Of a DNA stretch of 64,000 bases, positions 8,409-35,326 are shown in pieces; position 1 is the first letter of the stretch; every line of letters begins with the position of its first letter. A model generated the notes under the pieces. It worked only from the letters and a program-made list of their open reading frames with translations. It was not told where the DNA came from and did not search any database. Source of the stretch: a bacterium (GTDB lineage Bacteria > Pseudomonadota > Alphaproteobacteria > Acetobacterales > Acetobacteraceae); assembly GCA_026224825.1 (NCBI GenBank), contig JAMFRO010000050.1:1-64000 (forward strand). Direction: 5' to 3'. Made by a program: the position numbers and the translations under genes.

Positions 8409-8720
8409 TATGCGGGTGTGAGAATTGAGGAGGTTTGGGTGCCACAAGCGCGGGAATGGACGGCGGCGGCGGATAGAGTGATCTTTGATATGCGGGGGAC
8501 GGGGGAAACCTGGGCGGCGATTGGGCTGAGCTTGGGGCTCTCGCGCAATACGGTGATCGAGCGCGGCCGACGGCTGCAGGCCGAGGCGCCGGTAAGGGTT
8601 GTGGTGGTGAAAGAATATGATCTGCTGGAAGACCAAAATCGAGGGCCGTTGCCGGCGGGGCATCCGCTGACCTGGGGGTTGTTGAGCAGTGAGCCATATC
8701 CGATGGGAGAGCAAAAATGA
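8400..8720 (+). CDS. Small GcrA-like DNA-binding protein
   Basis: This 106-residue protein contains EWTAAADRVIFDMRGTGE followed by WAAIGLSLGLSRNTVIERG. That order matches the N-terminal helix-turn-helix of the alphaproteobacterial cell-cycle regulator GcrA (a WT...IA..LG.SRNAVIG pattern). The C-terminal half is unrelated. It is the first gene after the operators and ends 4 bases into the next start. It may be an early activator or a terminase small-subunit substitute. I chose the ATG at 8400, though it has no ribosome site; a TTG at 8382 is less likely. Confidence 0.6.
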   Translation: MSNYAGVRIEEVWVPQAREWTAAADRVIFDMRGTGETWAAIGLSLGLSRNTVIERGRRLQAEAPVRVVVVKEYDLLEDQNRGPLPAGHPLTWGLLSSEPYPMGEQK

Positions 8721-9214
8721 GCGATACGATGCGGGCATTTAAGGAAAGCGAGCTGCTGGGCTCGGGCGCGAAAACCGGGACGATTGCGGCAACGCGAATG
8801 CCGGGGGTGACGGCGGAGGATATCGTGGCGCGGTTTGAAGCGGCGGGGGCAACCTTGCTGGCACTGCCGGGGCGGGGGTATTCGACCCAGATACGGACGA
8901 TGCGGTTTGACGTGGTGCATAGCGCGCTCGATGCCTATGGCTGGCAGGGGGCTGTTGTACGGCCGCCGATGCCGAGTGCCTCGGCGATCAGCCAGATGGA
9001 TGAGGTATTTGGCTGGCTGACGCTGATCCCGGAGGCAAAATATGTGTTGCGGCGGATTTTGGGCGCGCGGGCGCTCGTGCATCCGGTGACGTTGCGGCAT
9101 TTGTTTCCGTGGCGGCGGATTGGGACCATGCTGGGGGCTGATCATAAATCTGTACAGCGTTGGCATGGCCAGGCGGTGGAGTTGTTGCGCGAGGCCTTGG
9201 GCGGTGGCGAATAA
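8717..9214 (+). CDS. DUF6362-like phage protein, HTH-type C-terminus
   Basis: The 165-residue protein resembles the DUF6362 phage family from memory, not from a search. Its C-terminal part reads LFPWRRIGTMLGADHKSVQ RWH in context, a helix-turn-helix-like pattern. Position immediately before the terminase large subunit suggests a DNA-recognition (small terminase) or late-control role. It overlaps the GcrA-like gene by 4 bases. Confidence 0.5.
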   Translation: MSDTMRAFKESELLGSGAKTGTIAATRMPGVTAEDIVARFEAAGATLLALPGRGYSTQIRTMRFDVVHSALDAYGWQGAVVRPPMPSASAISQMDEVFGWLTLIPEAKYVLRRILGARALVHPVTLRHLFPWRRIGTMLGADHKSVQRWHGQAVELLREALGGGE

Positions 9215-9323: not shown

Positions 9324-10682
9324 TTGATGGCTGATGCGGGGTTTTTAGCGTTTGCCCGCCAGGTTATGGCGGACAAAGGGCAGGTTCCGGCGGCGCATCA
9401 TGAATTGTTGATCAGCCGGTTGCAGGATGTGGCAGATGGGCGCTGCGACCGGCTGATGGTGCAGATGCCGCCGGGGTCGGCGAAATCGACTTACGGGTCG
9501 ATGTTGTTTCCGGCCTGGTTCATGGCACGAAGCAATGAGCAGGTGATTGCGGTGGCGCATACAGCCTCTCTGGCGGGGTATTTTGGCCAGGGGGTGCGGC
9601 GGGTGGTTGAGGGCCATGCCGGTTGGCTTGGTGTGGGGATTGCCAAGGAGAGCAAGGCGTCTTCGCGGTTCAAGCTTGAGGGTGGCGCGGAATATTTTGC
9701 GACCGGGGTGCGGGGGCCAATTACGGGCCGCCGGGCCGATTTGATATTGATTGATGATCCGGTGAAGTCCTGGGCTGAGGCGGAGAGCCCTGTTGCCAGG
9801 GATGCGTTGTTCGATTGGTACCGGGGTGAGTTGTCGGCGCGGTTGAAGCCTGGCGGGCGGGTCGTGCTGATTATGACGCGCTGGCATGAGGATGATCTGG
9901 CGGGACGGTTGCAGGGAAACGAGGCGGGCTGGGAGTGTTTGCGTTTGCCGGCGATTGCCGAGGCTGGTGATGCGCTGGGGCGGGCGCCGGGTGAGGTGCT
10001 GTGGCCGGAATGGCAGGATGCGGCGGCGGTGGCGCGGCGCAGGCTTGAGGTGGGTGAACGGGCGTTTTCCGCGATGTATCAGCAGGCGCCGCGACCGCCG
10101 GATGCGGCGCTGTTCAGGTGTGACAGGATACGGGTGCTGGCTGAGGCGCCGGGGTTAAGGCAATGCGTGCGGGGCTGGGATTTGGCGGCGAGCCTGCCGG
10201 GGCCTGGGCGAAGCCCGGATTACACGGTGGGGCTGAAGCTGGGTGTGACTTCTGAGAACCTGCTGGTGGTGCTGGATGTGGTGCGGTTTCAGGGATCGCC
10301 GGCACAGGTTGAGGCGCGGATACAGGATGTGGCCAGGCAGGATGGGCCGGGGGTGATTGTGGCGTTGCCGCAGGACCCGGGCCAGGCCGGGATGGCGCAG
10401 ATTACGATGCTGAGCCGGGGTTTGCAGGGATACAAGATTGTTTCGTCACCGGAGCGTGAGGCCAAGGTGGTGCGGGCGATGCCGGCGGCTACGCAAATGG
10501 ATGCGGGGAATATGATGATGGTGGCGGGGCCTTGGAACGATGCGTTGCTGGCTGAGCTGAAGGCATTTCCGCATGGAGGCAAGGATGACCAGGTGGATGC
10601 GCTCTCGCGCGCGGTGAATACTTTGGCAGGTAGTGCCGCGCAGCCGGCGCGGCGGTTGAATACGTGTTTTTTAAGCCGCTGA
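9324..10682 (+). CDS. Phage terminase large subunit
   Basis: TerL packages DNA with an ATPase motor and cuts it with an RNase-H-like nuclease. In 452 residues I see Walker A PPGSAKST (49-56), Walker B LILIDDP (140-146) and the coupling motif TRWHEDDLAGRL (184-195). The nuclease aspartates follow in GWDLA (283-287) and late in DDQVDALSRAV. All key residues are present, so it looks functional. Start ATG 9324 or the adjacent ATG 9327. Confidence 0.93.
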   Translation: MMADAGFLAFARQVMADKGQVPAAHHELLISRLQDVADGRCDRLMVQMPPGSAKSTYGSMLFPAWFMARSNEQVIAVAHTASLAGYFGQGVRRVVEGHAGWLGVGIAKESKASSRFKLEGGAEYFATGVRGPITGRRADLILIDDPVKSWAEAESPVARDALFDWYRGELSARLKPGGRVVLIMTRWHEDDLAGRLQGNEAGWECLRLPAIAEAGDALGRAPGEVLWPEWQDAAAVARRRLEVGERAFSAMYQQAPRPPDAALFRCDRIRVLAEAPGLRQCVRGWDLAASLPGPGRSPDYTVGLKLGVTSENLLVVLDVVRFQGSPAQVEARIQDVARQDGPGVIVALPQDPGQAGMAQITMLSRGLQGYKIVSSPEREAKVVRAMPAATQMDAGNMMMVAGPWNDALLAELKAFPHGGKDDQVDALSRAVNTLAGSAAQPARRLNTCFLSR

Positions 10683-10698
10683 TTGACGGAAGATATGC

Positions 10699-12093
10699 AT
10701 GTTTGAAACGATTTGCGGTGTTGTTCCGGCGGATACGAGTCTGCCGCCGCGGGTGGCAAGGCTGGATGTGTTGCGGCGTGTGCTGGATGGCACGTTGTAT
10801 GATAATTTGCCGTATCAATTTCATGAAGAGCGGAATGGGGCTGGGGAGTATATTCCACTCCGGCTGCGCCGGCCCTCTGTGCGTTATGGGTTGTGCCGGA
10901 TTGTTGTTGAGGATTCGGTGGCGTTGCTGTTCAGTGCTGGGCATTTTCCGGCGCTGGAGGCTGAGGATGCAGCGTTGGTGCGGGTGCTGCAGGATGTTAT
11001 GGCCGAGGCGCGGCTAAATGAGGTGATGATCGATGCGGCGCTGCGTGGCGCGGTTGGGTCTGTGGCGATTCTGTTCCGGGTGTTGCAGGGGCGGGTGTTT
11101 TTCTCGGTGCTGGAGAGTCTGTATCTGACGCCGGTGTGGAGCGCTGTGGCGCCGGATACGTTAGCCAGCGTGACGGAGAAATATAAGGTGAGCGGCGCGG
11201 ATTTGCTGGCGCAGGGGTATACGGATGTTGATCCGGAGTCTCAGTATTGGTTCCAGCGGGTTTGGGATACGCAGGGTGAGGATTGGTATCTGCCCTGGGG
11301 TGTGAATGAGCCGTTTGCCGGGCCGGTGAAGGATGAGAGCCGGAGTGTGGTGCATGGGCTTGGGTTTGTGCCCGTGGTGTGGATTAAGAATCTGCCGGGT
11401 GGTGAGGGGGTGGATGGCGGATGTACGTTCCGATCTGCCATCGATACCAGTATTGAGATTGATTACCAGTTGAGCCAGGCGGGGCGGGGGCTGAAATATA
11501 GTTCTGATCCGACGCTGCTGATTAAGGAACCTGCGACCAGTGATACGGAGATTGTGAAGGGTGCTGGGAATGCACTCGTCGTTTCCGAAAAGGGTGATGC
11601 CAAGCTGCTGGAGATTGGCGGGACGGCGGCGGAGGCGGTGATCTCTTACGTGCGGACGCTGCGGGAGTTCGCGCTGGAGAGCGTGCATGGAAATCGTGCG
11701 AGTGCGGACCGTTTGACGGCGGCGCAAAGTGGGCGGGCGCTTGAGCTGATGAACCAGGGGCTGATTTGGCTCGCGGATAATTTGCGTATTTCCTACGGCG
11801 ATGGCGGGGTGCTGGTGCTGGTGAAAATGATCATGCGGGCTTCGCAGGTTTTTACCCTGCAGGTGAATGGTGAGCCCATTGGTACGCTGGATGTGACGCG
11901 GCGGGTGCGGCTGCGCTGGCCGCGCTGGTATCCGCTTTCCGCTGATGACCGGCTGAAGGAGGCGCAGGCCGTGGCGACGCTGGTGAATGCGGGGCAGCTC
12001 TCGAAGGGGACCGGGGTGAAATTTGTTGCCGCATCGCATGGGATTGCTGATGTGGAGGCGGAATTGAATGCGATTGATCAGGATGCACCATGA
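10699..12093 (+). CDS. Phage portal protein
   Basis: The 464-residue protein lies directly after terL and before the scaffold and capsid genes. It has the character of SPP1 gp6-type portals: an N-terminal region on receptor-like folds, a middle stretch ending VSEKGDAKLLEIGG, and a helical region with AASADRLTAAQSGRALELM-like spacing. The portal forms the dodecameric DNA channel. The stop overlaps the next start as ATGA. Confidence 0.8.
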   Translation: MFETICGVVPADTSLPPRVARLDVLRRVLDGTLYDNLPYQFHEERNGAGEYIPLRLRRPSVRYGLCRIVVEDSVALLFSAGHFPALEAEDAALVRVLQDVMAEARLNEVMIDAALRGAVGSVAILFRVLQGRVFFSVLESLYLTPVWSAVAPDTLASVTEKYKVSGADLLAQGYTDVDPESQYWFQRVWDTQGEDWYLPWGVNEPFAGPVKDESRSVVHGLGFVPVVWIKNLPGGEGVDGGCTFRSAIDTSIEIDYQLSQAGRGLKYSSDPTLLIKEPATSDTEIVKGAGNALVVSEKGDAKLLEIGGTAAEAVISYVRTLREFALESVHGNRASADRLTAAQSGRALELMNQGLIWLADNLRISYGDGGVLVLVKMIMRASQVFTLQVNGEPIGTLDVTRRVRLRWPRWYPLSADDRLKEAQAVATLVNAGQLSKGTGVKFVAASHGIADVEAELNAIDQDAP

Positions 12094-12566: not shown

Positions 12567-13889
12567 ATGGGTATTCAGAATTTCCCGGCTGCGCTGCAGC
12601 CGATTATTCAACAAGGGTTTTTGGAGCGGGAGTTTGAGACCGCGCTGAAATCGCGGCTGGGCTACCGGCTGGTGGCGGACCGCGAGGAGTTTGCGGTTGG
12701 TATTGGTGAGACGCTGACCAAGACCCGGGCCGGGTTGAAGCCGAGCATCACCACGCCGCTTTCGGCTTCGACCAATACGAATCTGGATAATGGTCTGACG
12801 CCGGGCAACTGGGGTGTGGAGCAATATACGATTTCGCTGAACTTCTATGCGGCGACGCAGGATTTGAACATGGTGACCAGCCGTGTTGGCATTGCCTCGC
12901 AGTTTCTGGCGAATGCTGCGATCAATGGTGAGCAGGCGGCGCGCAGCCTGGATGAGCTAGCACGCAATGCGCTGTTTGCACCATATTTTGGTGGCAATAC
13001 GCGGGTGCTCACCACGCTGGGTTCTGCCGGCTCTGCCGTGGAGGTGGATGATGTGCGCGGGTTCCAGACCGTGTTTGTGAATGGTGTGCAGCAGAGTGTG
13101 TCTGCTCTCTATCCGCTCACCGTGACGGTGGGGGCTGATGTTTATGCCGTTGTGGGCGTGACGCCGGATCCGACAAATGTTTCGACTGCGCCGAATGGTA
13201 TTTCCGGCCAATTGTTGTTTTCGAGCAGCGTGTCGGTGAGTGATGGGACGGCTGGCAATGCCGTGAAGGCGGCGACCGGGAGCTCGATTGTGCGGCCGGC
13301 GCAGCGGAACACCACGGCGGGGCTGCAAGCGACTGATTTGCTGACCATGAGCAATCTGCTTGATGCCGTGGCGCTGCTGCGGCGTAACGCCGCGCCGCTG
13401 GTGGATGGGCTTTATAATTGTTATCTCGATCCGGTTTCGGCGCGGCAGTTGTTCTCGGATGCTGATTTCAAGCAGCTCTTCCAGGGTAGCTCCTCGGCCA
13501 ATCCGGTGTTTCGCCAGGGCATGGTGAGCGATTTCCTCGGCCTGCGCTTTATTACAACGACCGAGGCCTATGTGCAGAACCATCCGAGCATTAGCGGGCT
13601 TTATGTGCGCCGGCCGATTGTGTGCGGGCAGGGGGCGCTGATCGAGGGCGATTTTGCCGGCATGACGGCTGATGATGTGGCGCCGAAGGATAGCCTGGTG
13701 AATGTGATCGACGGCGTGGCGATGGTGACGCGTGAGCCGATTGACCGGCTGCAGCAGATTATCGCGCAGAGCTGGTATTGGATTGGCGGATTTTGTGCGC
13801 CCTCCGACACCACCACGACCGCGACCACCGTGCCGACCGCGACCAATGCGAATTACAAACGTGCGGTGTTGATCGAGCACGTCGGTTAA
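12567..13889 (+). CDS. Major capsid protein
   Basis: The 440-residue protein follows the scaffold and precedes the connector genes. It shows no signal peptide or enzyme motif, and a mid-region (about 150-240) rich in Val, Thr and Gly that may be an inserted surface domain. The family is inferred from position, length and the ELARNALF/LLDAVALLRRNAAPLVDG stretches. A strong GAGAGG ribosome site ahead of the ATG at 12567 fits high expression. The 87-base gap upstream has an imperfect hairpin (about 12503-12527). Confidence 0.75.
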   Translation: MGIQNFPAALQPIIQQGFLEREFETALKSRLGYRLVADREEFAVGIGETLTKTRAGLKPSITTPLSASTNTNLDNGLTPGNWGVEQYTISLNFYAATQDLNMVTSRVGIASQFLANAAINGEQAARSLDELARNALFAPYFGGNTRVLTTLGSAGSAVEVDDVRGFQTVFVNGVQQSVSALYPLTVTVGADVYAVVGVTPDPTNVSTAPNGISGQLLFSSSVSVSDGTAGNAVKAATGSSIVRPAQRNTTAGLQATDLLTMSNLLDAVALLRRNAAPLVDGLYNCYLDPVSARQLFSDADFKQLFQGSSSANPVFRQGMVSDFLGLRFITTTEAYVQNHPSISGLYVRRPIVCGQGALIEGDFAGMTADDVAPKDSLVNVIDGVAMVTREPIDRLQQIIAQSWYWIGGFCAPSDTTTTATTVPTATNANYKRAVLIEHVG

Positions 13890-16235: not shown

Positions 16236-17789
16236 ATGCCGGTGTTTCAACAGGGCGCGCTGAATACGACGGCGCTGATCGTTCCTGATTTATATGTGCA
16301 GATTGTACCGCCGCAATCGCTGTTGCTGAATGGCGTGCCGACCGATGTGCTTGGCATTGTGGGGACGGCGAGCTGGGGCCCGGTGGGGGAGCCGGTGATT
16401 GTTGGCAATATGAGCGATTATGCCAGCAGCTTTGGTGCCGTGATGGCACGAAAATATGATATGGGCACGCAGGTGGCGACCGCCGTGCAGCAAGGGGCTG
16501 CGAATTTCCGTTGCGTTCGGGTGACGGATGGGACGGATACGGCGGCGGCGCTCTCGGTGCTTAACGGCGTGACGTTCACGGCGATTTATACCGGCAGTCT
16601 GGGTAATGAGCTTGCTGTGACGTTTTCGGCCGGCTCGGCAGCGAGTAGCTGGCGGTTGACGGTGGCGCTGCCGGGGCTGAGTCCTGAAGTGTTCGACAAT
16701 ATCACTGGTGCCGGGGCGGTGCTCTGGGAAAATCTGATGAATGCCGTGAATAACGGCAATGGGGTGCTGCGTGGGCCTTCGCAGCTTGTTGTGGCGAATG
16801 CCGGGGCGATGACGGCCACGCCGATTGCGGGTACGTTTGGTTTTTCCTCCGGTATTCCGGGGACGGATGGTGCCGGCAACCTGAGTGCTGCGACATTGGT
16901 GGGAAGCGATACGCTGCCGCGCCAGGGCATGTATGCGCTGAGTGGGCAGGGCTGTGAAATTGCGTTGCTTGCCGATGCGGATGATCCGACACAATGGAGT
17001 GTGCAAACCGAATTTGGCCTTGCCGAAGGCGTGTATATGATCTTGACGGGGCCGACGGGCGATAACATCGCCAATGCCGTGACCGTGAAGGCTGAGGCCG
17101 GTATTGATAGCTATGCGGCCAAGCTTATGTTTGGCGATTGGGTGTACTGGTCTGATCAGGCGAATGCGATCACCCGGCTGGTGTCGCCACAAGGCTTTGT
17201 GGCGGGGCGGTTGGCGAATCTTTCACCGGAACAATCGTCGCTGAACAAGCCGCTGTATGGCGTGATCGGGACTCAGAAATCCGGGCAGCCTGGGGGTGGC
17301 ACGGCGACGACCTATACCAGCGCGGATTTGGGTGTGCTGCTGGGGGCGGGGATTGATGTGATTGCGAACCCTCAGCCGGGGGGCAATTTCTGGGGTGTCC
17401 GCGGTGGGCATAATTCATCGTCCAATGCCGCGACGAATGGCGATAATTATACGCGGCTGACGAACTATATTGCCTATACGCTTTCCGCCGGAATGGGTGT
17501 GTATGTGGGGCAGTTGGTGAATGCGACGTTGTTTCAGAATATCCGCAGTACGCTGATGGCTTTTCTGAATGGGTTGCTGTCTCAGGGGATTCTGGGAAGC
17601 ACCGATGGCAGCCTGCCTTTCGCGGTGGTGTGCGATACCAGCAACAATCCGCAGAGCCGGACGGCGCTTGGCTATGTGCAGGCGGATGTGCAGGTGCGCT
17701 ACCAGGCCATCAATGAGAAGTTCATCGTGAATGTCCAGGGTGGGCAGACTGTGCAGGTGAGTGTGCAGACGCTCCCGGCCAGCTCTTAA
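16236..17789 (+). CDS. Phage tail sheath protein
   Basis: A 517-residue contractile sheath subunit. It has the sheath-family opening with a short strand-rich N-terminus (PDLYVQIVPPQSLLLNGVP), a central variable Gly/Ala-rich region, and a C-terminal part where sheath proteins interlock (TRLTNYIAYTLSAGMGVYVGQ). It is followed at once by a tube protein, which confirms a contractile tail (myovirus type). Confidence 0.88.
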   Translation: MPVFQQGALNTTALIVPDLYVQIVPPQSLLLNGVPTDVLGIVGTASWGPVGEPVIVGNMSDYASSFGAVMARKYDMGTQVATAVQQGAANFRCVRVTDGTDTAAALSVLNGVTFTAIYTGSLGNELAVTFSAGSAASSWRLTVALPGLSPEVFDNITGAGAVLWENLMNAVNNGNGVLRGPSQLVVANAGAMTATPIAGTFGFSSGIPGTDGAGNLSAATLVGSDTLPRQGMYALSGQGCEIALLADADDPTQWSVQTEFGLAEGVYMILTGPTGDNIANAVTVKAEAGIDSYAAKLMFGDWVYWSDQANAITRLVSPQGFVAGRLANLSPEQSSLNKPLYGVIGTQKSGQPGGGTATTYTSADLGVLLGAGIDVIANPQPGGNFWGVRGGHNSSSNAATNGDNYTRLTNYIAYTLSAGMGVYVGQLVNATLFQNIRSTLMAFLNGLLSQGILGSTDGSLPFAVVCDTSNNPQSRTALGYVQADVQVRYQAINEKFIVNVQGGQTVQVSVQTLPASS

Positions 17790-17803: not shown

Positions 17804-18232
17804 ATGCCGTATAATACATTCACGATTGGCAGCGATTGCCAGCTTGTGGTGATGGGTCCGTTTGGCCGGGTTGATCTGGCGCATGTGACCGGGTTTGAGG
17901 CGCATCAGTTGACGCTGGCGCTGCGGGTGGACCGGCTGGATGGTGTGCAGCTTGGGGCGGAGCTGCCGAAGGGTTGGGCGGGGGGTTTCCAGCTCGATCG
18001 CGGCTCGTCCGCGGTGGATGATTTTATTGCGCAGATCGAGCAGGCCTATCTGGCGGGGCAATCGATTTCCGCTGGGACACTCTACCAATATGTGAATGAG
18101 CCGGATGGATCGACCTCGACCTATCAGTTCAATGGGGTGGTTTTCAAATTGACTTCCGCCGGGGTGTATAAGGGCGATGCGGCTGTGACGCAGAAGCTTG
18201 ATTTTTATGCGTCCGGGAGGATCCGGGTATGA
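17804..18232 (+). CDS. Phage tail tube protein
   Basis: 142 residues, the usual size for tail tube subunits of P2-like phages. It starts behind AAGGGGAAG and follows the sheath gene directly. The C-terminal FNGVVFKLTSAGVYKGD stretch resembles the tube beta-barrel hairpin. Its stop overlaps the chaperone start by 4 bases. Confidence 0.8.
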   Translation: MPYNTFTIGSDCQLVVMGPFGRVDLAHVTGFEAHQLTLALRVDRLDGVQLGAELPKGWAGGFQLDRGSSAVDDFIAQIEQAYLAGQSISAGTLYQYVNEPDGSTSTYQFNGVVFKLTSAGVYKGDAAVTQKLDFYASGRIRV

Positions 18233-18534
18233 GGGCTGACCAGGTGCAGGACAAGGCTGGGCGGGTGATTGAGCTGCGCCGGCTGGGGGTTGTGGAGCAA
18301 CTGCGGCTGTTCAAGGTGCTGGGGCCGGAGCTTTCGGAAAACCGCGCTTATGTGGGGCTGGCGCGGGTTGCTGCGGCGGTGGCGGCGGTGGATGGCGTTC
18401 CGGTGCCGTTTCCGGGCGGTGAGGCGGGGATTGAGGCGGCGCTTGAGCGGCTGGGTGAGGATGGCGTGGAGGCTGTGGCCGCGACGCTTGCGGGGCCTGC
18501 CGTGGAGCAGGTACTGGCCGAAGCGGGAAACTGA
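18229..18534 (+). CDS. Tail assembly chaperone, short form (G-like)
   Basis: 101 residues, rich in Leu/Glu/Ala, located where lambda G or P2 E is found. The 0-frame product ends at a TGA directly after a G GGA AAC heptamer (18525-18531). The same message should yield a longer -1 product. The chaperone would guide tube assembly. Confidence 0.8.
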   Translation: MRADQVQDKAGRVIELRRLGVVEQLRLFKVLGPELSENRAYVGLARVAAAVAAVDGVPVPFPGGEAGIEAALERLGEDGVEAVAATLAGPAVEQVLAEAGN

Positions 18535-18695
18535 CCCGGCACCCCGCACTGACGGATTGTTTGTATCTTGTTGGCTGTGGGGTGCCGTATGCGGTGGCAT
18601 TTGGGTTGGATGACGCTGAGCGCATTGCTTATACTGTATGTTTTGGCACGCTCGCCGGTTTGAGTTTTGACTGGCAGAGATTGTGCTGGGATTGA
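18229..18695 (+). CDS. Tail assembly chaperone, -1 frameshift form (GT-like)
   Basis: Reading re-enters in the -1 frame at 18531 (that base read twice). It gives 54 further residues ending at the TGA at 18693, for 155 in all. The extension begins LTRHPALTDCLYLVGCGVPY and ends in Trp/Cys-rich sequence. It fills the gap to the next gene exactly, as lambda GT and P2 E' do. It lacks its own start codon and ribosome site, so the frameshift is the only obvious way to make it. Confidence 0.8.
18525..18587 (+). promoter_or_regulatory. Programmed -1 frameshift signal
   Basis: The slippery heptamer GGGAAAC is read as G GGA AAC and is followed by the stop TGA. Five bases on, 18537-18548 pairs with 18576-18587 as a 12-bp stem (one G-U pair) with a 27-base loop. 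Nine pairs are uninterrupted GC-rich ones. Heptamer, spacer and stem match known -1 signals. Confidence 0.82.
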
Positions 18696-18717: not shown

Positions 18718-19419
18718 ATGATGAGCAACGTGGTGTTGACGCTCGGCGGGGTGCCTTTCCAGGATATGGAGGTGCCGGAGAAAATCAACTTCGGCGGCAA
18801 GCAGCGCGTGGCGGTGCAGAATTTGATTGGCGGCGGACGTGTGGTTTCGGCACTCGGGCTGGATGATGGCGAGATAAGTTTCGCCGGCATTTTTTCGGGC
18901 GCGGATGCTGTGTCCCGGGCGCAGGAGCTGGATGCGGCGCGGGGGCTGGGGGCACAATTGCCTTTGGTGTGGTCTGGGTTTTTCTACATTGTGGTGATCG
19001 AGAAATTTACGGCGGAATTCCGTAAGCCGACATTGATACCATTTTCGATCACCTGCCTGGTGGTGACGGATCCTTTGGCCGCGGCGGCCAATCTGGTGGC
19101 GCCGCTGGCGAATCTGGTGGGTGGTGATTTGGCTGCGGCATTAGGATTGAGTGGGCAGGCGGGGATTTCGCTGCAAGGGCTCAGCGCGACGAGTTTAAGC
19201 GGGTTTGCCGCGGTGCAGGGGCTGCTGGGGGCGGGGATCGGTTCGATGGGTTCATCGTTGGGCGCGGCGGCGTCTTCGCTGAATGGGGCTGTGACGGCGG
19301 ATGCCGGTGTGGCGGCGCTGGGAAGTCTGGGGGCTGTGTCTGGTCAGTTGGCGGGGGCGACGGCGATGCAGGGCTATGTGAGTCGGGCGGCCGTGAATCT
19401 GGGAGCGTCTTTGCTATGA
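18718..19419 (+). CDS. gpU-like tail protein with long Ala/Gly tail
   Basis: 233 residues. About the first 120 resemble P2 gpU: NVVLTLGGVPFQDMEVP, EISFAGIFSG, LPLVWSGFFYIVVIEKF and a terminal strand PFSITCLVV. The remaining 110 are almost only Ala, Gly, Leu, Ser and Val, a composition not seen in gpU. No tape-measure gene lies before it, where P2 gpT would be. ATG 18718 or 18721. Confidence 0.65.
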   Translation: MMSNVVLTLGGVPFQDMEVPEKINFGGKQRVAVQNLIGGGRVVSALGLDDGEISFAGIFSGADAVSRAQELDAARGLGAQLPLVWSGFFYIVVIEKFTAEFRKPTLIPFSITCLVVTDPLAAAANLVAPLANLVGGDLAAALGLSGQAGISLQGLSATSLSGFAAVQGLLGAGIGSMGSSLGAAASSLNGAVTADAGVAALGSLGAVSGQLAGATAMQGYVSRAAVNLGASLL

Positions 19420-19604
19420 ATGGTCAGGTTGTTGTGGTGGCCGGCGGGAATTTATTTGCGCTGGCGGCGCAGTATTTGGGCGATGCGACGCAGTGGATTC
19501 GTATTGCACAGGCAAATCAACTTTCTGATCCGTTGCTGGAAGGTGTGAATACGCTTGTGATCCCGCCGGTTGATCCGACGGCGGGGGGTGGCATTGCCTC
19601 TTGA
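19416..19604 (+). CDS. LysM-type tail protein X
   Basis: 62 residues with a LysM-like fold: a short strand, LFALAAQYLGDATQWIRIAQAN and a closing VIPP strand. P2 gpX is the counterpart; it links baseplate hub and tube. It overlaps the gpU-like gene by 4 bases and the next gene at its 3' end. Confidence 0.8.
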   Translation: MNGQVVVVAGGNLFALAAQYLGDATQWIRIAQANQLSDPLLEGVNTLVIPPVDPTAGGGIAS

Positions 19605-20577
19605 GCAGCCGCGGGCGCGGGTCAGTATTGATGGCGTGCCGGTGCCTGGGCTTGTTGAACTGGAAATTGATGCCGGAGGGTGTTTCCAGGCGGGGCGGTT
19701 TCTGGCGGCATTTGCGCTGGGTGCGGTGCCTGGGTTCGATGTGACGTATTATGCGGGGCTGACAAGCCAGAATGTGCTGATTGAGGTGGCGCCGGATGGG
19801 CTTGGTTATGTAACGATGCTAACGGGCCAAGTTGATGCTGTGCGGATTGATTGGACGAGGAGACTTGCCTCGATCAGCGGGCGCGATTTGACGGCGTTGT
19901 TGATTGATACTGAAATTGCTCAGAGTTTTGTGAATCAGACGGCGAGCCAGATTGCTCAGGGGATTGCCGGGGAGCATGGGCTGGTGCCGAACGTGATGCC
20001 GACGACGGCTTTGGTGGGGCAATATTATCAGTTGGACCATGCGCGAACCGCATTGGGGCTGAACGCACATGTGACGACAGAGTGGGAGTTGCTGACTGCT
20101 TTGGCGCTGGCTGAAGGGTATCTGGTTTCGATTACAGGAAACACGTTGAATTTTGGGCCACCGCAGGCGCCGGTGCCGGTGTTCATGACGCCGGGAAGTA
20201 TGTCTGGTTTGTCGTTTGATATGATTACCACCCTGCCGGGAGCGGCTACGGTAAAGTCGTGGAATTGCCGGAACAAATCTGTTGTGACCGAGACGCAAGG
20301 GGCGGGATTGATGGCGACGATTATACGCCCGAACCTGGTGCAGGCGCAGGCACAGGCGCTGGCGCAGGGGCATTTGCAGATATTGGGTCAGCACAGGCTG
20401 ATTATGCAGGCCAGGATGCCGGCGGATGCGGTGTTGGCACCTGGAATGCAGTTGTTTTTGGCGGGTGTGGGAGGTGCGCTGGATCAGACCTATGTGGTGG
20501 ATGCCGTGAAGCGGCGGTTAGATGGAAGGGCGGGGTTTGTGCAGGATGTGCGAGCTCATGCGGCGGCGGTGATGTGA
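19588..20577 (+). CDS. gpD-like baseplate hub protein
   Basis: 329 residues resembling P2 gpD (late control D/hub; T4 gp27 fold): EQPRARVSIDGVPVPGL, a TYYAGLTSQNVLIEV strand pair and an ISGRDLTALLIDTEI segment near 100. The start is uncertain because no ATG is available. GTG 19588 or TTG 19594 lie behind a G-rich stretch, and TTG 19570 is also in frame. The stop overlaps the next start (TGATG). Confidence 0.72.
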   Translation: MALPLEQPRARVSIDGVPVPGLVELEIDAGGCFQAGRFLAAFALGAVPGFDVTYYAGLTSQNVLIEVAPDGLGYVTMLTGQVDAVRIDWTRRLASISGRDLTALLIDTEIAQSFVNQTASQIAQGIAGEHGLVPNVMPTTALVGQYYQLDHARTALGLNAHVTTEWELLTALALAEGYLVSITGNTLNFGPPQAPVPVFMTPGSMSGLSFDMITTLPGAATVKSWNCRNKSVVTETQGAGLMATIIRPNLVQAQAQALAQGHLQILGQHRLIMQARMPADAVLAPGMQLFLAGVGGALDQTYVVDAVKRRLDGRAGFVQDVRAHAAAVM

Positions 20578-21492: not shown

Positions 21493-22617
21493 ATGCAATT
21501 ATCTCTACAGAATTTTTCCTCTCTGATGGAGGGGATGGCTTCGGCTGTGCAGGGTGCGGCGTCGAGCCTGGTGGATTTGACGGTGGGCTCGGTATTGCGG
21601 GCCATTTTGGAGGCGAATGCCTCTGTTGCGCTGTGGTTGCAGTGGCTGATTGTTGAAGTGCTCGCGGGGACGCGGCTGGCGACGAGCAGTGGCGTGGATT
21701 GTGATAGTTTTGGCGCGGATTTTGGTTTTATGCGTTTGCCCGCGGTGGCGGCTTCCGGCCAGGTTACGTTTTCACGGTTCAGTGCGACGGGGGCGGCTAT
21801 GGTGCCTGTAGGGGCGAGCGTGGCGACAACAGGGAATTCGCAGAGTTTCATTGTCGTCGGGGATGCAAGCAATGCGGCGTATAATGCGGCGACGGGCGGA
21901 TATGTGATTATGGCCGGCGTGTCTGCTGTGAATGCGACGGTTGTTGCCAATACTGCCGGCACGTCCGGGAATGTGCTGCCGGGGATGATTTCACTGATCA
22001 GCGCGGCGATGCCAGGAATAGATACGGTGACAAATGAAAATATCCTCACCGGTGGTGTGGATGCGGAAAGCGATGTGGCGTTCAAGGCGCGGTTCGGCAA
22101 TTATCTGGGCAGCCTGTCCCGGGCGACCAATGTTGCCATTGGGGCGGCGATTGATGCGATCCAGCAGGGGCTAAGTTACAGCGTTACTGAGAATTATAAT
22201 CAGGCGAGTGCCGTGCAGATGGGGCATTTTGTTGTTACGGTAGATGACGGAACCGGTTCGCCGCCTGTGACATTGCTGCAGACGGTGCAGCAGGCGGTGA
22301 ATGCGATACGCCCGGTGGGAACAAGTTTTGCGGTGCAGGGGCCTGTTGTGGTTTTGGCAAATGTCTCGGTGACGTTGGCGACGGCAACGGGTGCGAATCA
22401 TGCCGCGGCGATTACGGCGGTGGCGGCTGCATTCGAGAGCTATATTGCCTCGCTGCCGATCGGGGCGGCACTGAGTTACACCAAGCTGGCGCAACTGGCC
22501 TATGAGGCTTCCAGCGCTGTTGTGAACTTATCTGGACTGGCCTTGAACAATGGGACAACCGATCTCGTGCCGCCGTTGTTTGGCGTTGTGCGGGGCGGTG
22601 TGATGACGGTGTCCTGA
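21493..22617 (+). CDS. Baseplate wedge protein J (gpJ-like)
   Basis: 374 residues, the normal size of Mu gp47/P2 J-type wedges. I see an N-terminal helical part, SVVDLT/VGSVLRAILEANASVALWLQWL-like sequence, a Gly/Ala/Thr middle, and the ESDVAFKARFGNYLG stretch near 200 that is typical of the family. Confidence 0.82.
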   Translation: MQLSLQNFSSLMEGMASAVQGAASSLVDLTVGSVLRAILEANASVALWLQWLIVEVLAGTRLATSSGVDCDSFGADFGFMRLPAVAASGQVTFSRFSATGAAMVPVGASVATTGNSQSFIVVGDASNAAYNAATGGYVIMAGVSAVNATVVANTAGTSGNVLPGMISLISAAMPGIDTVTNENILTGGVDAESDVAFKARFGNYLGSLSRATNVAIGAAIDAIQQGLSYSVTENYNQASAVQMGHFVVTVDDGTGSPPVTLLQTVQQAVNAIRPVGTSFAVQGPVVVLANVSVTLATATGANHAAAITAVAAAFESYIASLPIGAALSYTKLAQLAYEASSAVVNLSGLALNNGTTDLVPPLFGVVRGGVMTVS

Positions 22618-27597: not shown

Positions 27598-27640
27598 CGT
27601 CAGGACCGCCGAGAGCAGATTAATTCAACGAAAGCTGATC

Positions 27641-29797: not shown

Positions 29798-29801
29798 CGA
29801 G

Positions 29802-31955: not shown

Positions 31956-32282
31956 ATGGAGATTGAGACGATTACCCTGTTGCGTAGCGATATTGCGGGG
32001 TTACGTAATGATATGACTGCCATACGGCAGGATGTAGGAATTTTGGAAACGAAAGCGGATTCACTAGAGACGTGGCGCGTGCATTATCTGGCGCACGAAG
32101 ATCAGGTGATCAGCAAGCTTTTTGCAAAGGTTGATGAGTTGGTTTCAGGGTTGGGGGATGTGCGGGCGGATTTGTCGCGAATCCGTGGTGAGCGGGACGC
32201 CGAGCGGCGGATGAGTATGATGGTGATCAGCGTGTTATCCGCGGCATGCGGTGGATTGATTGCGAGTCTGTTTCATGGATAA
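31956..32282 (+). CDS. Coiled-coil membrane protein, XhlA-like
   Basis: 108 residues: a long charged coiled coil (about 5-85) and one C-terminal membrane segment (MMVISVLSAACGGLIASLF). Phage haemolysin XhlA-type proteins share this layout and act with holins. It overlaps the endolysin start by 8 bases, which supports a lysis role. Confidence 0.6.
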   Translation: MEIETITLLRSDIAGLRNDMTAIRQDVGILETKADSLETWRVHYLAHEDQVISKLFAKVDELVSGLGDVRADLSRIRGERDAERRMSMMVISVLSAACGGLIASLFHG

Positions 32283-32787
32283 TTTTGCGCGGTGTTTTGC
32301 CTTTACGTTGAGTGCGGAGGGCGGGTTTACGAAGATAGCGTCTGACCCGGGTAACTGGACCGGTGGTGCGGTGGGGCACGGTGAGCTGCGCGGGACCAAA
32401 TATGGGATAAGTGCGGCGGCATATCCGGGGTTGGATATTGAAAATCTTTCCGAACAGAATGCGGAGGATATTTACCGGCGGGATTATTATGAGCCGTTGC
32501 ATGGGGACCAGTTGAGCCTGCCGGTGGCGCTGGTGCTGTTTGATGGGGCGGTGAATGCCGGGCTGCGCAGGGCGGTGATCTGGTTGCAGCAGGCGGCAAG
32601 CCTGCTCGCGGATGGGGTGTTGGGGGCGCAGACATTGCAGGCGGTGAGCGCTGCTGATGCGTTGGTGTTGGTGCGGGAGGTGTTGGCGCGCCGGATTGAT
32701 TTTTATGCGCGTTTGCCGACCTGGCCGGATTTTGGGCTGGGGTGGAGCCGGCGGGTTATTGCACTGGCTGATGAGATTTTGCGATGA
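32275..32787 (+). CDS. Endolysin, GH108-type muramidase
   Basis: 170 residues. The N-terminal SAEGGFTK carries the catalytic Glu15 and GTKYGISAAAYPG follows, the usual GH108 layout. The insertion between GGFT and TKYGIS (SDPGNWTGG...) also agrees with the family. It cuts MurNAc-GlcNAc bonds for release. The ATG at 32275 is chosen because the frame upstream codes only for the overlapping gene. Confidence 0.88.
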   Translation: MDNFARCFAFTLSAEGGFTKIASDPGNWTGGAVGHGELRGTKYGISAAAYPGLDIENLSEQNAEDIYRRDYYEPLHGDQLSLPVALVLFDGAVNAGLRRAVIWLQQAASLLADGVLGAQTLQAVSAADALVLVREVLARRIDFYARLPTWPDFGLGWSRRVIALADEILR

Positions 32788-33518: not shown

Positions 33519-33947
33519 ATGAGAAGATTGTGTTTGATTTTTAGCGTGGTTTTGGTGGCTTTTGCTGGGTGTGCTCGAGCGGCATCTACGGAACAGTTCA
33601 GATTTCAGGATCTTGAGTATTACTATTTGCATTATTATCTGCCGCCTGCTTCGGACGACCCAGAACAAACTCAGTTGAAGAACTATGCTGTAAAGTATGC
33701 TGAGGCACATTTTCCTCTGGGGTCATCGGCTTCGGCTGCTGTATCGGCACTGACGATGGCAGGAGCAAAATGCTCGGTGGGCGACGATCCGAATGAGCCC
33801 CCCGCTCTTATTTGCGACTGGTCAAGGCCGAGTTACGGGTTGGATTATTTTTGTTGTCAAATCGATTGGATGGCCGTGTTGGTGACAGACAAAAAATACG
33901 TGACAATTCAAGATATATGGATGAGTCGCACGGAAAGTGGTCCGTAA
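33519..33947 (+). CDS. Secreted/lipoprotein-type cargo protein
   Basis: 142 residues with a signal peptide (MRRLCLIFSVVLVAFAGC) whose Cys18 would be lipidated, then a mature part with six tyrosines and a paired Cys-Cys (DYFCCQID). It has no phage structural character and is richer in A/T than the late genes. It follows a terminator-like hairpin, so it may have its own promoter (lysogenic expression). It could be an immunity-type partner of the next gene; that is inference. Confidence 0.65.
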   Translation: MRRLCLIFSVVLVAFAGCARAASTEQFRFQDLEYYYLHYYLPPASDDPEQTQLKNYAVKYAEAHFPLGSSASAAVSALTMAGAKCSVGDDPNEPPALICDWSRPSYGLDYFCCQIDWMAVLVTDKKYVTIQDIWMSRTESGP

Positions 33948-33970
33948 ATAGCGCGGGGTGGTTTGGTTTC

Positions 33971-35326
33971 ATGGGAAAGATAGAAGTATATTTCAAAAAT
34001 CTAAATTATGCGGATGATAAAACTTACTATCATGAATTTATTGTTTGGACCCCTGATAAAGGCCCAGCCAGATTTATCCGTGGGGGGCCTGAATCAGGCC
34101 ATAACATGGGTTCGGGCAGTGGAGGCGGTAGCGGCAGTGCAGGTTTTTCTGTGGGGAAGACGGGCGTTAATGTTCCGTTTGGCGCCATAAATGTCCAAGC
34201 CGATATTTATGAAGGGGGTGCAAGAGATTGGGCAAAGCCGGGAGTCGATCCAAGTCAGACCATTATCACTGGATCAGATCAACAACTTGCATCTTACTGG
34301 CAAAAAATGGTTACCGAAGGGGCGGCAATAAATAAAGAAAATACTGGCTACGCCTTTGCCGGCCCCAATAGTAACACTGTTGTGACAACATTACTCGAAG
34401 CAGCAGGACTTCCATTGCCAAAAGACAATGGGTTGAATGGTACAACGCCTGCCCCTGGTGCAGAAATGTCATTGTTGAATCACCACTACTCGGCCGGTCT
34501 CGGTTATGAAGAGCTGGCGGAGAATACAGGAGCCAGGGGGGTGCGAGATGCCGAGCATGGTTTTGGCACGATAATGCACGACATAGGGAATGATTTTGGT
34601 GCCGCGATAGGGGCGTTTCGTAAGGCGCTCAAAACCGTGGCGGCGACGGCAAGTGCCGATATGCGAGGAATGGGGCTTTATGGTGTGGCGATGGCGGCTG
34701 GCCGGCCGGGGCTGGGCGGGTTTGCGCCGATTGCTGGCATGCCCGGGCGACAGGCGGCACAAAAATCGAGGGCTCTGGCACCCGTGGGTGAGGCGGGTGT
34801 TTTGGCCGCTGGGCTGGGTGGTGTGCAGGCCGATGCCGGGGTTTTAGCCGCGCGGCAGGGGGATGGAGCAAAAACATCCTACCGGACGGTTGTGGCACAA
34901 GCGCGGCATCAGGCGGCGGCTGGGCGGGCGCGACGGGAGGCCGATGCGGCGGAGCTGTATCTGCCGATGCGTGGGGCGGGGTTGGCGGGATTGTCTTTTG
35001 CGCCACGGGCAGGTGGTGGTGCGGCTGGTGGGAGTTCGCTTCATCCGGCGGTGCCGGGTTCCGCTGGAGCGCCTGGATTGCGCCGGCGGAACAGCGTGCA
35101 TGAGGCGGTGTCGGTGGCGGAAGCGGCTTCCTCGGATCGTGGGGAGGCGGGGGCTCAGGAATTTGCGGCTGGAGCTGAGCCTGCGCCGCCGGGGGTGATA
35201 CCTGCCGATATTGAGCGGGCGGTGGAAGATTATTTCTTCAGGCAGTCGCGTTTGCCGCCTACTGGCGGGGCGGGGTTTAATCCGCTGCTCAGCCCGGTTT
35301 GGGCGGGATTAAAAATACCGGGCTAG
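33971..35326 (+). CDS. Putative papain-like-fold cargo protein with Ala/Gly-rich tail
   Basis: 451 residues. An N-terminal part (about 1-190) has KTYYHEFIVWTPDKG and later GYAFAGPNSNTVVTTLLEAAG. That pairing of an early His and a late GPNSN recalls permuted NlpC/P60-like domains in toxin or effector proteins, recalled from memory. No cysteine is present anywhere, so it cannot be a usual Cys enzyme. The remaining 250 residues are Ala/Gly-rich. Start may be 33917. It ends in the CTAG shared with recX. Confidence 0.45.
   Translation: MGKIEVYFKNLNYADDKTYYHEFIVWTPDKGPARFIRGGPESGHNMGSGSGGGSGSAGFSVGKTGVNVPFGAINVQADIYEGGARDWAKPGVDPSQTIITGSDQQLASYWQKMVTEGAAINKENTGYAFAGPNSNTVVTTLLEAAGLPLPKDNGLNGTTPAPGAEMSLLNHHYSAGLGYEELAENTGARGVRDAEHGFGTIMHDIGNDFGAAIGAFRKALKTVAATASADMRGMGLYGVAMAAGRPGLGGFAPIAGMPGRQAAQKSRALAPVGEAGVLAAGLGGVQADAGVLAARQGDGAKTSYRTVVAQARHQAAAGRARREADAAELYLPMRGAGLAGLSFAPRAGGGAAGGSSLHPAVPGSAGAPGLRRRNSVHEAVSVAEAASSDRGEAGAQEFAAGAEPAPPGVIPADIERAVEDYFFRQSRLPPTGGAGFNPLLSPVWAGLKIPG

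What the first reader, a model, noticed from the sequence alone, without database searches (positions are those of the whole stretch)
18718..19419. No tape-measure protein; a gpU-like protein with a 110-residue Ala/Gly tail stands in its place
Seen: between the chaperone (ends 18695) and the LysM gene (19416) is just one gene of 233 codons. In P2 this gap holds the ~800-codon gpT plus U. Known: tape-measure length sets tail length. Inferred: either a very short contractile tail with a tape measure reduced to this helix-like tail, or a tail whose length is set in another way.
Basis: partly seen in the sequence, partly recalled or inferred. Interest (0 to 1): 0.65.

Follow-up and report, generated by a model that had tools for sequence, protein, structure and literature searches.

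The report
Relocated tape-measure gene with toxin-like domain
The gene that normally sets the length of a phage tail is missing from its usual place because it has moved to the other end of this inherited phage-like cluster, where it is short and appears to be joined to a toxin-like domain with its own partner gene, which would turn a ruler into a payload.

Summary
The gap is real: one 233-codon gene lies between chaperone and LysM. But the element has a tape measure. In 8 of 8 long-gap Acidocella genomes a 244-336-aa gene fills this gap; in the window's clade the gap is short and that gene's homologue is the last gene of the cluster (12 of 13 short-gap genomes; window 33812-35326, likely start 33971). 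A profile made from gap genes alone finds the window copy at E=7e-16. Terminal profiles of the family versions join them to recognised tape measures (E 1e-10 to 6e-4). The 18718 gene is an XkdP-like baseplate protein; its Ala/Gly helices also occur beside a normal tape measure. The cluster is inherited vertically across Acetobacteraceae.

Most surprising: here tape-measure genes carry exchangeable N-terminal domains (two muramidase-like), mostly preceded by an envelope-protein gene; for four domain families the upstream genes match one to one. The window copy (domain 33971-34594, partner 33519-33947) is such a pair; its genome has a second tagged gene elsewhere. I infer a short contractile particle whose tape measure doubles as toxin carrier. 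Particles, tail length and toxicity are untested.

The parts
8717..9214 (+). DUF6362 gene, first gene of the cluster
   Evidence: PF19889 E=2.3e-11; next to TerL in many relatives
9324..10682 (+). large terminase
   Evidence: PF17289 E=8.5e-14, PF03237 E=4.4e-9; dN/dS 0.18 against G014
10699..12093 (+). portal-like gene (named by position only)
   Evidence: no Pfam match; conserved in order in relatives; dN/dS 0.09
12567..13889 (+). major-capsid-like gene (named by position only)
   Evidence: no Pfam match; one match in each of 26 of 38 genus genomes, 23 of them (own included) at 83-100% identity; dN/dS 0.07
16236..17789 (+). tail sheath
   Evidence: phrog_23 E=1.3e-48
17804..18232 (+). tail tube (by position)
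   Evidence: phrog_12993, no function given
18229..18534 (+). tail assembly chaperone, 0-frame product (by position and frameshift)
   Evidence: phrog_20383, no function given
18525..18695 (+). slippery GGGAAAC and -1 frame extension (54 aa) of the chaperone
   Evidence: 89 of 90 distinct chaperone ends have a heptamer of the slippery pattern, 81 of them GGGAAAC; extension 50-65 aa
18718..19419 (+). XkdP-like baseplate/tube-fold protein with helical Ala/Gly tail; not a tape measure
   Evidence: phrog_21362 E=1.1e-37; AlphaFold2 and Foldseek; alignment A1
19416..19604 (+). LysM gene, matching the C-terminal part of the same XkdP-like profile
   Evidence: phrog_21362 positions 263-317, E=8.2e-17
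19603..20577 (+). baseplate hub (gpD-like)
   Evidence: phrog_52, phrog_177
21493..22617 (+). baseplate J
   Evidence: PF04865 E=7.2e-33
32260..32787 (+). endolysin
   Evidence: PF05838 E=7.4e-18
33519..33947 (+). ORF of 142 aa with hydrophobic, signal-peptide-like start; putative immunity partner of the domain at 33971
   Evidence: homologue upstream of the same domain in L147, E=1.4e-11, 37% identity
33971..34594 (+). variable N-terminal domain E4 of the relocated gene (ORF open from TTG 33812; ATG 33971 likely start)
   Evidence: 52% identity, E=2e-49, to L147 8084-8722, which lies at the tape-measure place of another contig; absent from the nearest relative G014 at this site and from the 37 other genus genomes searched
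34600..35326 (+). tape-measure-derived module (about 220-240 aa), relocated to the 3' end of the cluster
35189..35323 (+). conserved C-terminal 45 residues shared with the gap genes of relatives and, more remotely, with recognised tape measures
   Evidence: Ac profile E=7.4e-16; family C-terminal profile E=1.8e-5; alignment A4

Best explanation
The cluster at about 8.7-35.3 kb is a vertically inherited, head-bearing contractile phage-like particle of Acetobacteraceae. Its tape measure is short. In the ancestors of the window's Acidocella clade the tape-measure gene moved from its usual place (between chaperone and XkdP-like gene) to the end of the cluster, next to recX, so the gap now holds only the baseplate protein. 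The chaperone keeps its programmed -1 frameshift. The moved gene keeps the tape-measure C-terminal anchor, expected (from cyanophage A-1(L)) to sit at the baseplate spike/hub. In the window its N-terminus is joined to an exchangeable domain with an envelope-type partner gene upstream. Shown by sequence: the gap, the homology, the relocation, the co-segregation of domain and partner families E1-E4, the vertical inheritance. Inferred: that the module is the tail's ruler, that the tail is short (roughly 35-45 nm at about 1.5 A per residue), and that the domain is a cargo toxin acting in the periplasm with the partner as immunity protein.
For: Measured gaps are bimodal: 166-209 nt or at least 914 nt. 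Within Acidocella, 8 of 8 long-gap genomes have the gene in the gap, and 12 of 13 short-gap genomes have it at the 3' end of the cluster. Each of the 8 long-gap genomes has exactly one match to the C-terminal profile, in the gap. A profile from 6 gap genes alone finds the window ORF at E=7.4e-16 among 9350 ORFs, and a profile from the 3'-end genes finds the gap genes. In 17 clusters from 12 other genera a 254-456-aa gene lies in the gap, so the gap position is ancestral. Family N-terminal profile: 607-, 660- and 591-aa proteins at E=7.5e-9, 4.5e-8, 9.1e-8. Family C-terminal profile: E=4.1e-10, 4.3e-9 and 6.2e-4 to the same three, and 1.8e-5 to the window ORF. Those three match phrog_28 'tail length tape measure protein'. 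Capsid-portal-sheath distances follow host MiaB distances (29 genomes of 11 genera, Mantel r 0.83, 0 of 10000 permutations reach it). dN/dS against G014 is 0.07-0.18 for the structural genes and endolysin tested and 0.31 for the relocated module.
Against: The short genes match no tape-measure family directly, and their middles are variable and look rich in Ala, Pro, Arg and Gly rather than coiled coil. The link of the window's gene to recognised tape measures runs through intermediates; the C-terminal profiles trained on Acidocella alone reach the 660-aa tape measure only at E=0.02-0.07, and 2 of the 17 other-genus gap genes (L197, L198) are missed by the Acidocella profile. 1 of 13 short-gap genomes (G005, 82% complete) has no such gene in the assembly. 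The XkdP-like gene itself is interrupted in G016. A ruler whose length varies with an added domain is odd.
Confidence: 0.82

Rival explanations
1. The tape measure is truly lost and tail length is set in another way, or by the Ala/Gly helices of 18718-19419.
For: phrog_28, the tape-measure family of the relatives, has 0 matches in the own genome. The tail of 18718-19419 is predicted helical.
Against: The homologue of the gap gene is at 33812-35326. The same kind of Ala/Gly tail exists beside a 742-aa tape measure in phiKX1. Its matched length does not differ between gap classes.
Confidence: 0.06
2. The C-terminal motif is not a tape measure at all but a particle-loading tag; the gap gene of relatives is a cargo gene and the real tape measure is unrecognised.
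For: The tag occurs on 7 dispersed genes away from the cluster in 4 Acidocella genomes, several with unrelated N-terminal domains. The short genes have no tape-measure family match.
Against: In the wider family several gap genes carry a second, N-terminal motif that is also found in phrog_28 tape measures. In the 17 other-genus clusters this gene is the longest same-strand ORF listed in the gap.
Confidence: 0.12
3. The added N-terminal domains are ordinary tail-associated cell-wall lysins that help DNA entry, and the upstream envelope proteins are superinfection-exclusion proteins that recognise the tape measure, as Ltp of phage TP-J34 is reported to do; no toxin function.
For: Two domains match muramidase-type families (L250: PF01464 E=3.4e-7; L138: phrog_27932 E=2e-6). 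An envelope lipoprotein that targets a tape measure is known (reference title seen in PMC3952083).
Against: Domains and partners occur as pairs at many loci, partners are sometimes duplicated, and pairs occur as orphans with no cluster genes matched nearby. This rival differs from immunity mainly in purpose.
Confidence: 0.35
4. The cluster is a decaying prophage and the arrangement is degeneration.
For: Similar Acetobacteraceae regions were called possible degraded prophage in PMC12142844 (passages). Frame breaks occur in some copies (L147, L171, L250, and the XkdP-like gene of G016). G024 has lost the cluster except for a 78-aa remnant of this gene at the same site.
Against: dN/dS 0.07-0.18, a conserved frameshift, and co-diversification with hosts across 11 genera.
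Confidence: 0.12

Closest known systems
PBSX and PBSX-like particles of Bacillus (PMC8347963, passages)
   Same: Chromosomal, head-bearing particle with the xkd-type tail gene order (contractile: recalled); conserved across a host group; reported to package host DNA fragments and to kill related strains.
   Different: Its tape measure xkdO is in place; a repressor and sigma factor are reported there, which I did not look for systematically here. Packaging and killing are untested here.
Gene transfer agents (RcGTA, BaGTA, BhGTA; PMC9662315, passages)
   Same: Vertical co-inheritance with the host, structural and packaging genes kept under constraint.
   Different: The passages I read describe non-contractile tails for BhGTA and BaGTA; here a contractile sheath is encoded. 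DNA transfer is untested.
MuF polymorphic toxins of temperate phages (PMC5576092, passages)
   Same: A phage structural protein bears exchangeable toxin domains, and a small partner ORF goes with the toxin-bearing versions.
   Different: MuF belongs to the packaging module, with C-terminal toxins and downstream partners; here the carrier is the tape measure, the domain is N-terminal and the partner lies upstream, with signal-peptide-like or membrane segments.
Tape measures with cell-wall-hydrolase motifs (e.g. mycobacteriophage TM4, PMC1796659, search listing only)
   Same: Enzyme motif on a tape measure.
   Different: Paper not read; the listing says nothing of exchangeable domains with partner genes.
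XkdP / LysM baseplate proteins (phage Emery gp17; phrog_21362)
   Same: N-terminal domain of 18718-19419 plus LysM.
   Different: Two genes here; placed directly after the chaperone because the tape measure moved.

Membership tests
P2 gpU (PF06995) | sequence match to the family | tested here: not met
   0 matches in the own genome, 2 of 14 control genomes positive; no Pfam match for the protein
XkdP-like LysM baseplate protein (phrog_21362) | N-terminal domain followed by LysM | tested here: met
   two adjacent genes match profile positions 1-149 (E=1.1e-37) and 263-317 (E=8.2e-17)
Phage tape measure | gene between chaperone and XkdP/gpU-type gene | tested here: not met
   in the window the gap is 187 nt; met in 8 of 8 long-gap Acidocella genomes and in the 17 other-genus clusters
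Phage tape measure | homology to recognised tape measures | tested here: met
   through intermediates: window to family C-terminal profile E=1.8e-5; the same profile to phrog_28 members E=4e-10, 4e-9 and 6e-4. Direct family match: none
Phage tape measure | length determines tail length | not testable with these tools
   needs particles
Gene transfer agent | vertical inheritance under purifying selection | tested here: met
   same chromosomal neighbours in many Acidocella genomes
Gene transfer agent | no integration or replication module | tested here: inconclusive
   none seen among the cluster ORFs scanned, but not every ORF was scanned
Gene transfer agent | packages and transfers host DNA | not testable with these tools
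   needs particles
Polymorphic toxin system | constant carrier domain with exchangeable domain | tested here: met
   4 shared domain families plus 5 single sequences on the same tail
Polymorphic toxin system | cognate immunity gene adjacent | tested here: inconclusive
   partner families map one to one on domain families E1-E4, but L246 and L250, with unrelated domains, share an upstream family, and immunity itself is inferred
Polymorphic toxin system | toxicity neutralised by the partner | not testable with these tools
   needs an assay

The most novel reading that the evidence does not exclude
In Acidocella and close relatives the tape measure of an inherited contractile particle has become the carrier of a polymorphic toxin system: exchangeable N-terminal effector domains, each with an upstream envelope immunity gene, ride on a minimal tape measure anchored by its C-terminus in the baseplate. 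Because the gene moved away from the tail operon, spare tape-measure-toxins scattered in the genome can be swapped into the same particle, so that the ruler of the tail is at once its warhead.
Probability: 0.5. Interest if true: 0.88.

Novelty: new variant of a known kind. Interest (0 to 1): 0.76.

Why it matters
It explains a missing tape measure by relocation rather than loss, and shows a tail system in which the ruler gene is unlinked from the tail operon, very short and modular. If the attached domains are toxins, the tape measure is a cargo slot in a natural contractile particle, which bears on how phage tails became weapons and on what a tail's lumen can carry. The family-wide vertical inheritance of a contractile, head-bearing cluster also makes a contractile gene-transfer-agent-like or PBSX-like particle in Acetobacteraceae directly testable in named strains (Acidocella aromatica, A. 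facilis, A. aquatica, Acidiphilium rubrum).

Tried and rejected
P2 gpU identity by sequence: rejected. Ala/Gly tail as tape measure: rejected. Direct match of the short or fused genes to known families: none for the short ones; for fusions only L138 and L250 matched anything convincing. Search for relatives of the window's E4 domain in viral contigs with the single sequence found none, although L147 was already in hand; in the genus only the own genome has it. Solved structures by sequence for the XkdP-like profile, E4 and E1: no meaningful match. AlphaFold2 of E4 failed (2 sequences, mean pLDDT 39.5), so no fold search was made with it. The Foldseek list for the XkdP-like model supports only a general tube/baseplate fold (TM-scores by query length 0.25-0.39 in the 50 rows listed). 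The association of extra domains with an upstream hydrophobic-start ORF (15 of 17 against 1 of 48 loci, Fisher p=1e-11) is partly circular: the domain families were first noticed in long-gap loci. Of the 71 distinct gaps, 6 without a detected tape-measure tail were left out of that table, and 1 of the 17 (L070) appears to match only through the shared module. 'Signal peptide' and 'membrane' rest on a hydrophobicity script and reading by eye, not on a dedicated predictor; 2 of its 25 upstream ORFs (L248, L250a) had no segment over its threshold. The 3' ends of 12 further short-gap viral contigs were not examined. Of 19 non-Acidocella clusters fetched, two more distant ones (L199, L200) are not in the 17: L199 had no chaperone match, L200 has a 454-aa gap gene. 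Portal and capsid are named by position. Novelty searches in the paper library; I saw nothing on exchangeable tape-measure toxins with immunity genes in the rows listed, which are a capped part of the papers found; most subscription journals are not held.

Full report
Observation. The chaperone ends on the slippery heptamer GGGAAAC and continues in the -1 frame to 18695. This device is conserved: 89 of 90 distinct chaperone ends examined carry a heptamer of the slippery pattern (81 GGGAAAC, 6 AAAAAAC, 2 others) with an extension of 50-65 residues.

What the 18718 gene is. It matches phrog_21362 at profile positions 1-149 (E=1.1e-37), and the next gene, LysM, matches positions 263-317 of the same profile (E=8.2e-17): the two read as one XkdP-like protein in two genes. 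Pfam's gpU family does not match. The homologue in Brevibacillus phage Emery (gp17) follows directly after an annotated 999-aa tape measure. In Komagataeibacter phage phiKX1 the homologue (306 aa) keeps a long Ala/Gly/Ser tail, and a 742-aa gene matching phrog_28 lies upstream. An AlphaFold2 model from 37 sequences (mean pLDDT 75.6, pTM 0.43) shows a beta domain followed by three helices. Foldseek's best solved structures are baseplate or needle chains of phages Mu, phiCD508, Milano and 7-7-1 and of diffocin. The tail therefore belongs to a baseplate protein and does not replace a tape measure. Its matched length is the same whether or not a tape-measure gene is in the gap (224-233 aa in 8 genomes with it, 223-233 aa in 11 without; the G016 copy is interrupted and G061 was not in that search).

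Where the tape measure went. The genus is Acidocella by the record titles of same-genus contigs, e.g. JAMFRU010000040.1, whose length equals that of G014:C104. Of 38 genus genomes, 26 have a capsid match, one each. Comparing gene order shows two classes. In 8 genomes (G002, G004, G006, G009, G010, G022, G031, G032) the distance from chaperone to XkdP-like gene is 947-1351 nt and holds a 244-336-aa gene. In 13 (G000, G001, G005, G007, G013, G014, G016, G020, G023, G026, G034, G035, G061) it is 166-209 nt; G030 is cut by a contig end. In 12 of these 13, a gene with the same C-terminus lies at the 3' end of the cluster: next to recX in 11 (in G016, G020 and G023 on another contig than the gap), and at the contig end in G001; none was found in G005. 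The 8 long-gap genomes have exactly one copy each in the whole-genome scan, the one in the gap. A profile of the last 45 residues built only from 6 gap genes finds the window ORF 33812-35326 at E=7.4e-16 among 9350 ORFs; a profile from 8 3'-end genes (window included) finds the gap genes.

Is it a tape measure? Seventeen clusters from 12 other Acetobacteraceae genera have a gap gene of 254-456 aa; 15 of the 17 match the Acidocella C-terminal profile at E of 0.044 or better, L197 and L198 do not. Seven of the 17 begin with a motif like MNDAYSIGITLSLDDEVSSGI. A profile of these 7 N-termini finds a 607-aa (L094, Isosphaeraceae), a 660-aa (L037) and a 591-aa (L096, Limnoglobus) protein at E=7.5e-9, 4.5e-8 and 9.1e-8. 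The C-terminal profile of the 17 finds the same three at 4.1e-10, 4.3e-9 and 6.2e-4, and the window ORF at 1.8e-5 (11534 ORFs). The three match phrog_28, 'tail length tape measure protein' (E=2.9e-20, 1.3e-12, 9.4e-22). The short versions themselves match no family. In cyanophage A-1(L) the C-terminal 20-residue helices of the tape measure form a tripod with the central spike, and a tape measure of at least 689 residues goes with a 1045-A tail (PMC10966104, passages). By that ratio (about 1.5 A per residue) a 221-280-residue module would span about 33-42 nm. Since the gap position is found in all 17 outgroup clusters, the move to the end is derived. The own genome has no phrog_28 match.

The cluster is inherited vertically. 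In the sample of 299 Acetobacteraceae genomes, 121, in 49 of 102 genera, match the XkdP-like profile; the weaker matches include more distant, phage-type elements. For 29 genomes of 11 genera (30 shared, G031 dropped because no portal match was found in its stretch) distances of capsid+portal+sheath follow those of the host protein MiaB (Mantel r=0.83, 0 of 10000 permutations). In Acidocella the glycosyltransferase gene upstream of the window's cluster lies upstream of the cluster in 13 other genomes (11, G005, G061), and recX follows downstream in many; in G006, G010 and G031 recX was not found in the downstream stretch fetched. In G024 the site holds only a 78-aa remnant of the tape-measure C-terminus beside recX. 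Against the nearest genome, G014, dN/dS is 0.07 capsid, 0.09 portal, 0.10 sheath, 0.07 tube, 0.09 XkdP-like, 0.18 terminase, 0.31 tape-measure module; flanking host genes 0.19 and 0.06. [quoted passage not shown] I did not test whether those regions are this cluster.

The unexpected part. Searching the genus with the C-terminal profile gave further copies (27 of 38 genomes match in all, one of them, G033, only weakly at E=0.007). Seven copies in four genomes (G000, G014 twice, G026, G036 three times) lie away from the cluster. Five of the seven encode an unrelated N-terminal domain followed by the tape-measure tail, with a signal-peptide-like or membrane ORF upstream (L244, where it lies about 500 nt away, L245, L246, L248, L249); in L250 the domain and the tail are in different frames, and L247 is short and at a contig end. 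The own genome's orphan (G000:C16) shares the module with the window gene over 229 alignment positions, 39% identity, E=1.9e-31. In metagenomic contigs the same kinds of fusions occupy the normal tape-measure place, again mostly preceded by an envelope ORF. All-against-all comparison of 24 sequences gives four shared families: E1 (4 members), E2 (10), E3 (3), E4 (2), and five singles. The 25 upstream ORFs fall into families that map one to one on E1-E4; outside these, L246 and L250, whose domains are unrelated, share an upstream family. One E1 member of two scanned (L138, not L111) matches a baseplate-hub/tail-lysozyme family (phrog_27932, E=2e-6), and the L250 domain is an SLT transglycosylase (PF01464, E=3.4e-7, above its cut-off). 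The window copy belongs to E4: its domain 33971-34594 is 52% identical (E=2e-49) to that of L147, and its upstream ORF 33519-33947 is 37% identical (E=1.4e-11) to that of L147. The nearest relative, G014, has no such domain at this site (247 aa).

Interpretation. I read this as a contractile, head-bearing particle kept by its hosts, with a minimal tape measure that has become a carrier for exchangeable domains protected by partner proteins. The logic is that of MuF polymorphic toxins (PMC5576092, passages) with a different phage protein as carrier. The envelope location predicted for the partners and the two muramidase-like domains point to the periplasm. A milder reading is that the domains are entry lysins and the partners superinfection-exclusion proteins; lipoprotein Ltp is reported to target a tape measure (reference title in PMC3952083). 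Sequence cannot decide between them.

Limits. The statistics for domain and partner (15 of 17 against 1 of 48 loci) are partly circular, as the families were noticed in the long-gap loci. Genomes in the same clade are not independent. Three fusions are broken in the available contigs (L147, L171, L250). G036 has three orphan tagged genes but no capsid match, so tagged genes can persist without a particle or the particle genes are not assembled. No particle, tail length, toxicity or immunity has been shown.

Noticed in passing
G000:C16:45214-46155 (L244 7215-8156): Second tape-measure-tailed gene (313 aa) in the window's own genome, away from the cluster, with an ORF that has membrane segments about 500 nt upstream.
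   Followed up: partly
L257 8043-8279 (G024:C28): The cluster is deleted at its usual chromosomal site except for a 78-aa remnant of the tape-measure C-terminus next to recX; the genome has another, phage-type cluster with a 660-aa tape measure.
   Followed up: partly
L247, L248, L249 (G036): Three orphan tagged genes (one with the E1 domain) in a genome with no capsid match.
   Followed up: partly
L111 7298-8452, L123 3762-5337, L150 6349-7409: Partner (immunity-like) genes are duplicated in tandem upstream of the fusion.
   Followed up: no
L126 6884-7852, L140 8081-9049, L171 6352-7314: A conserved ORF of 320-322 aa with hydrophobic start near tape-measure genes, looking like a secreted phosphodiester-glycosidase-type protein (recalled, not searched).
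   Followed up: no
L094 and L096 (Isosphaeraceae, Limnoglobus): Planctomycete genome records carry the same tail cluster type with 591-607-aa tape measures.
   Followed up: no
window 25036-31946: Three large genes in a row (853, 718, 714 aa), two with weak tail-fibre matches, conserved at about 54-85% across the Acidocella stretches compared, which seems high for phage fibres.
   Followed up: no
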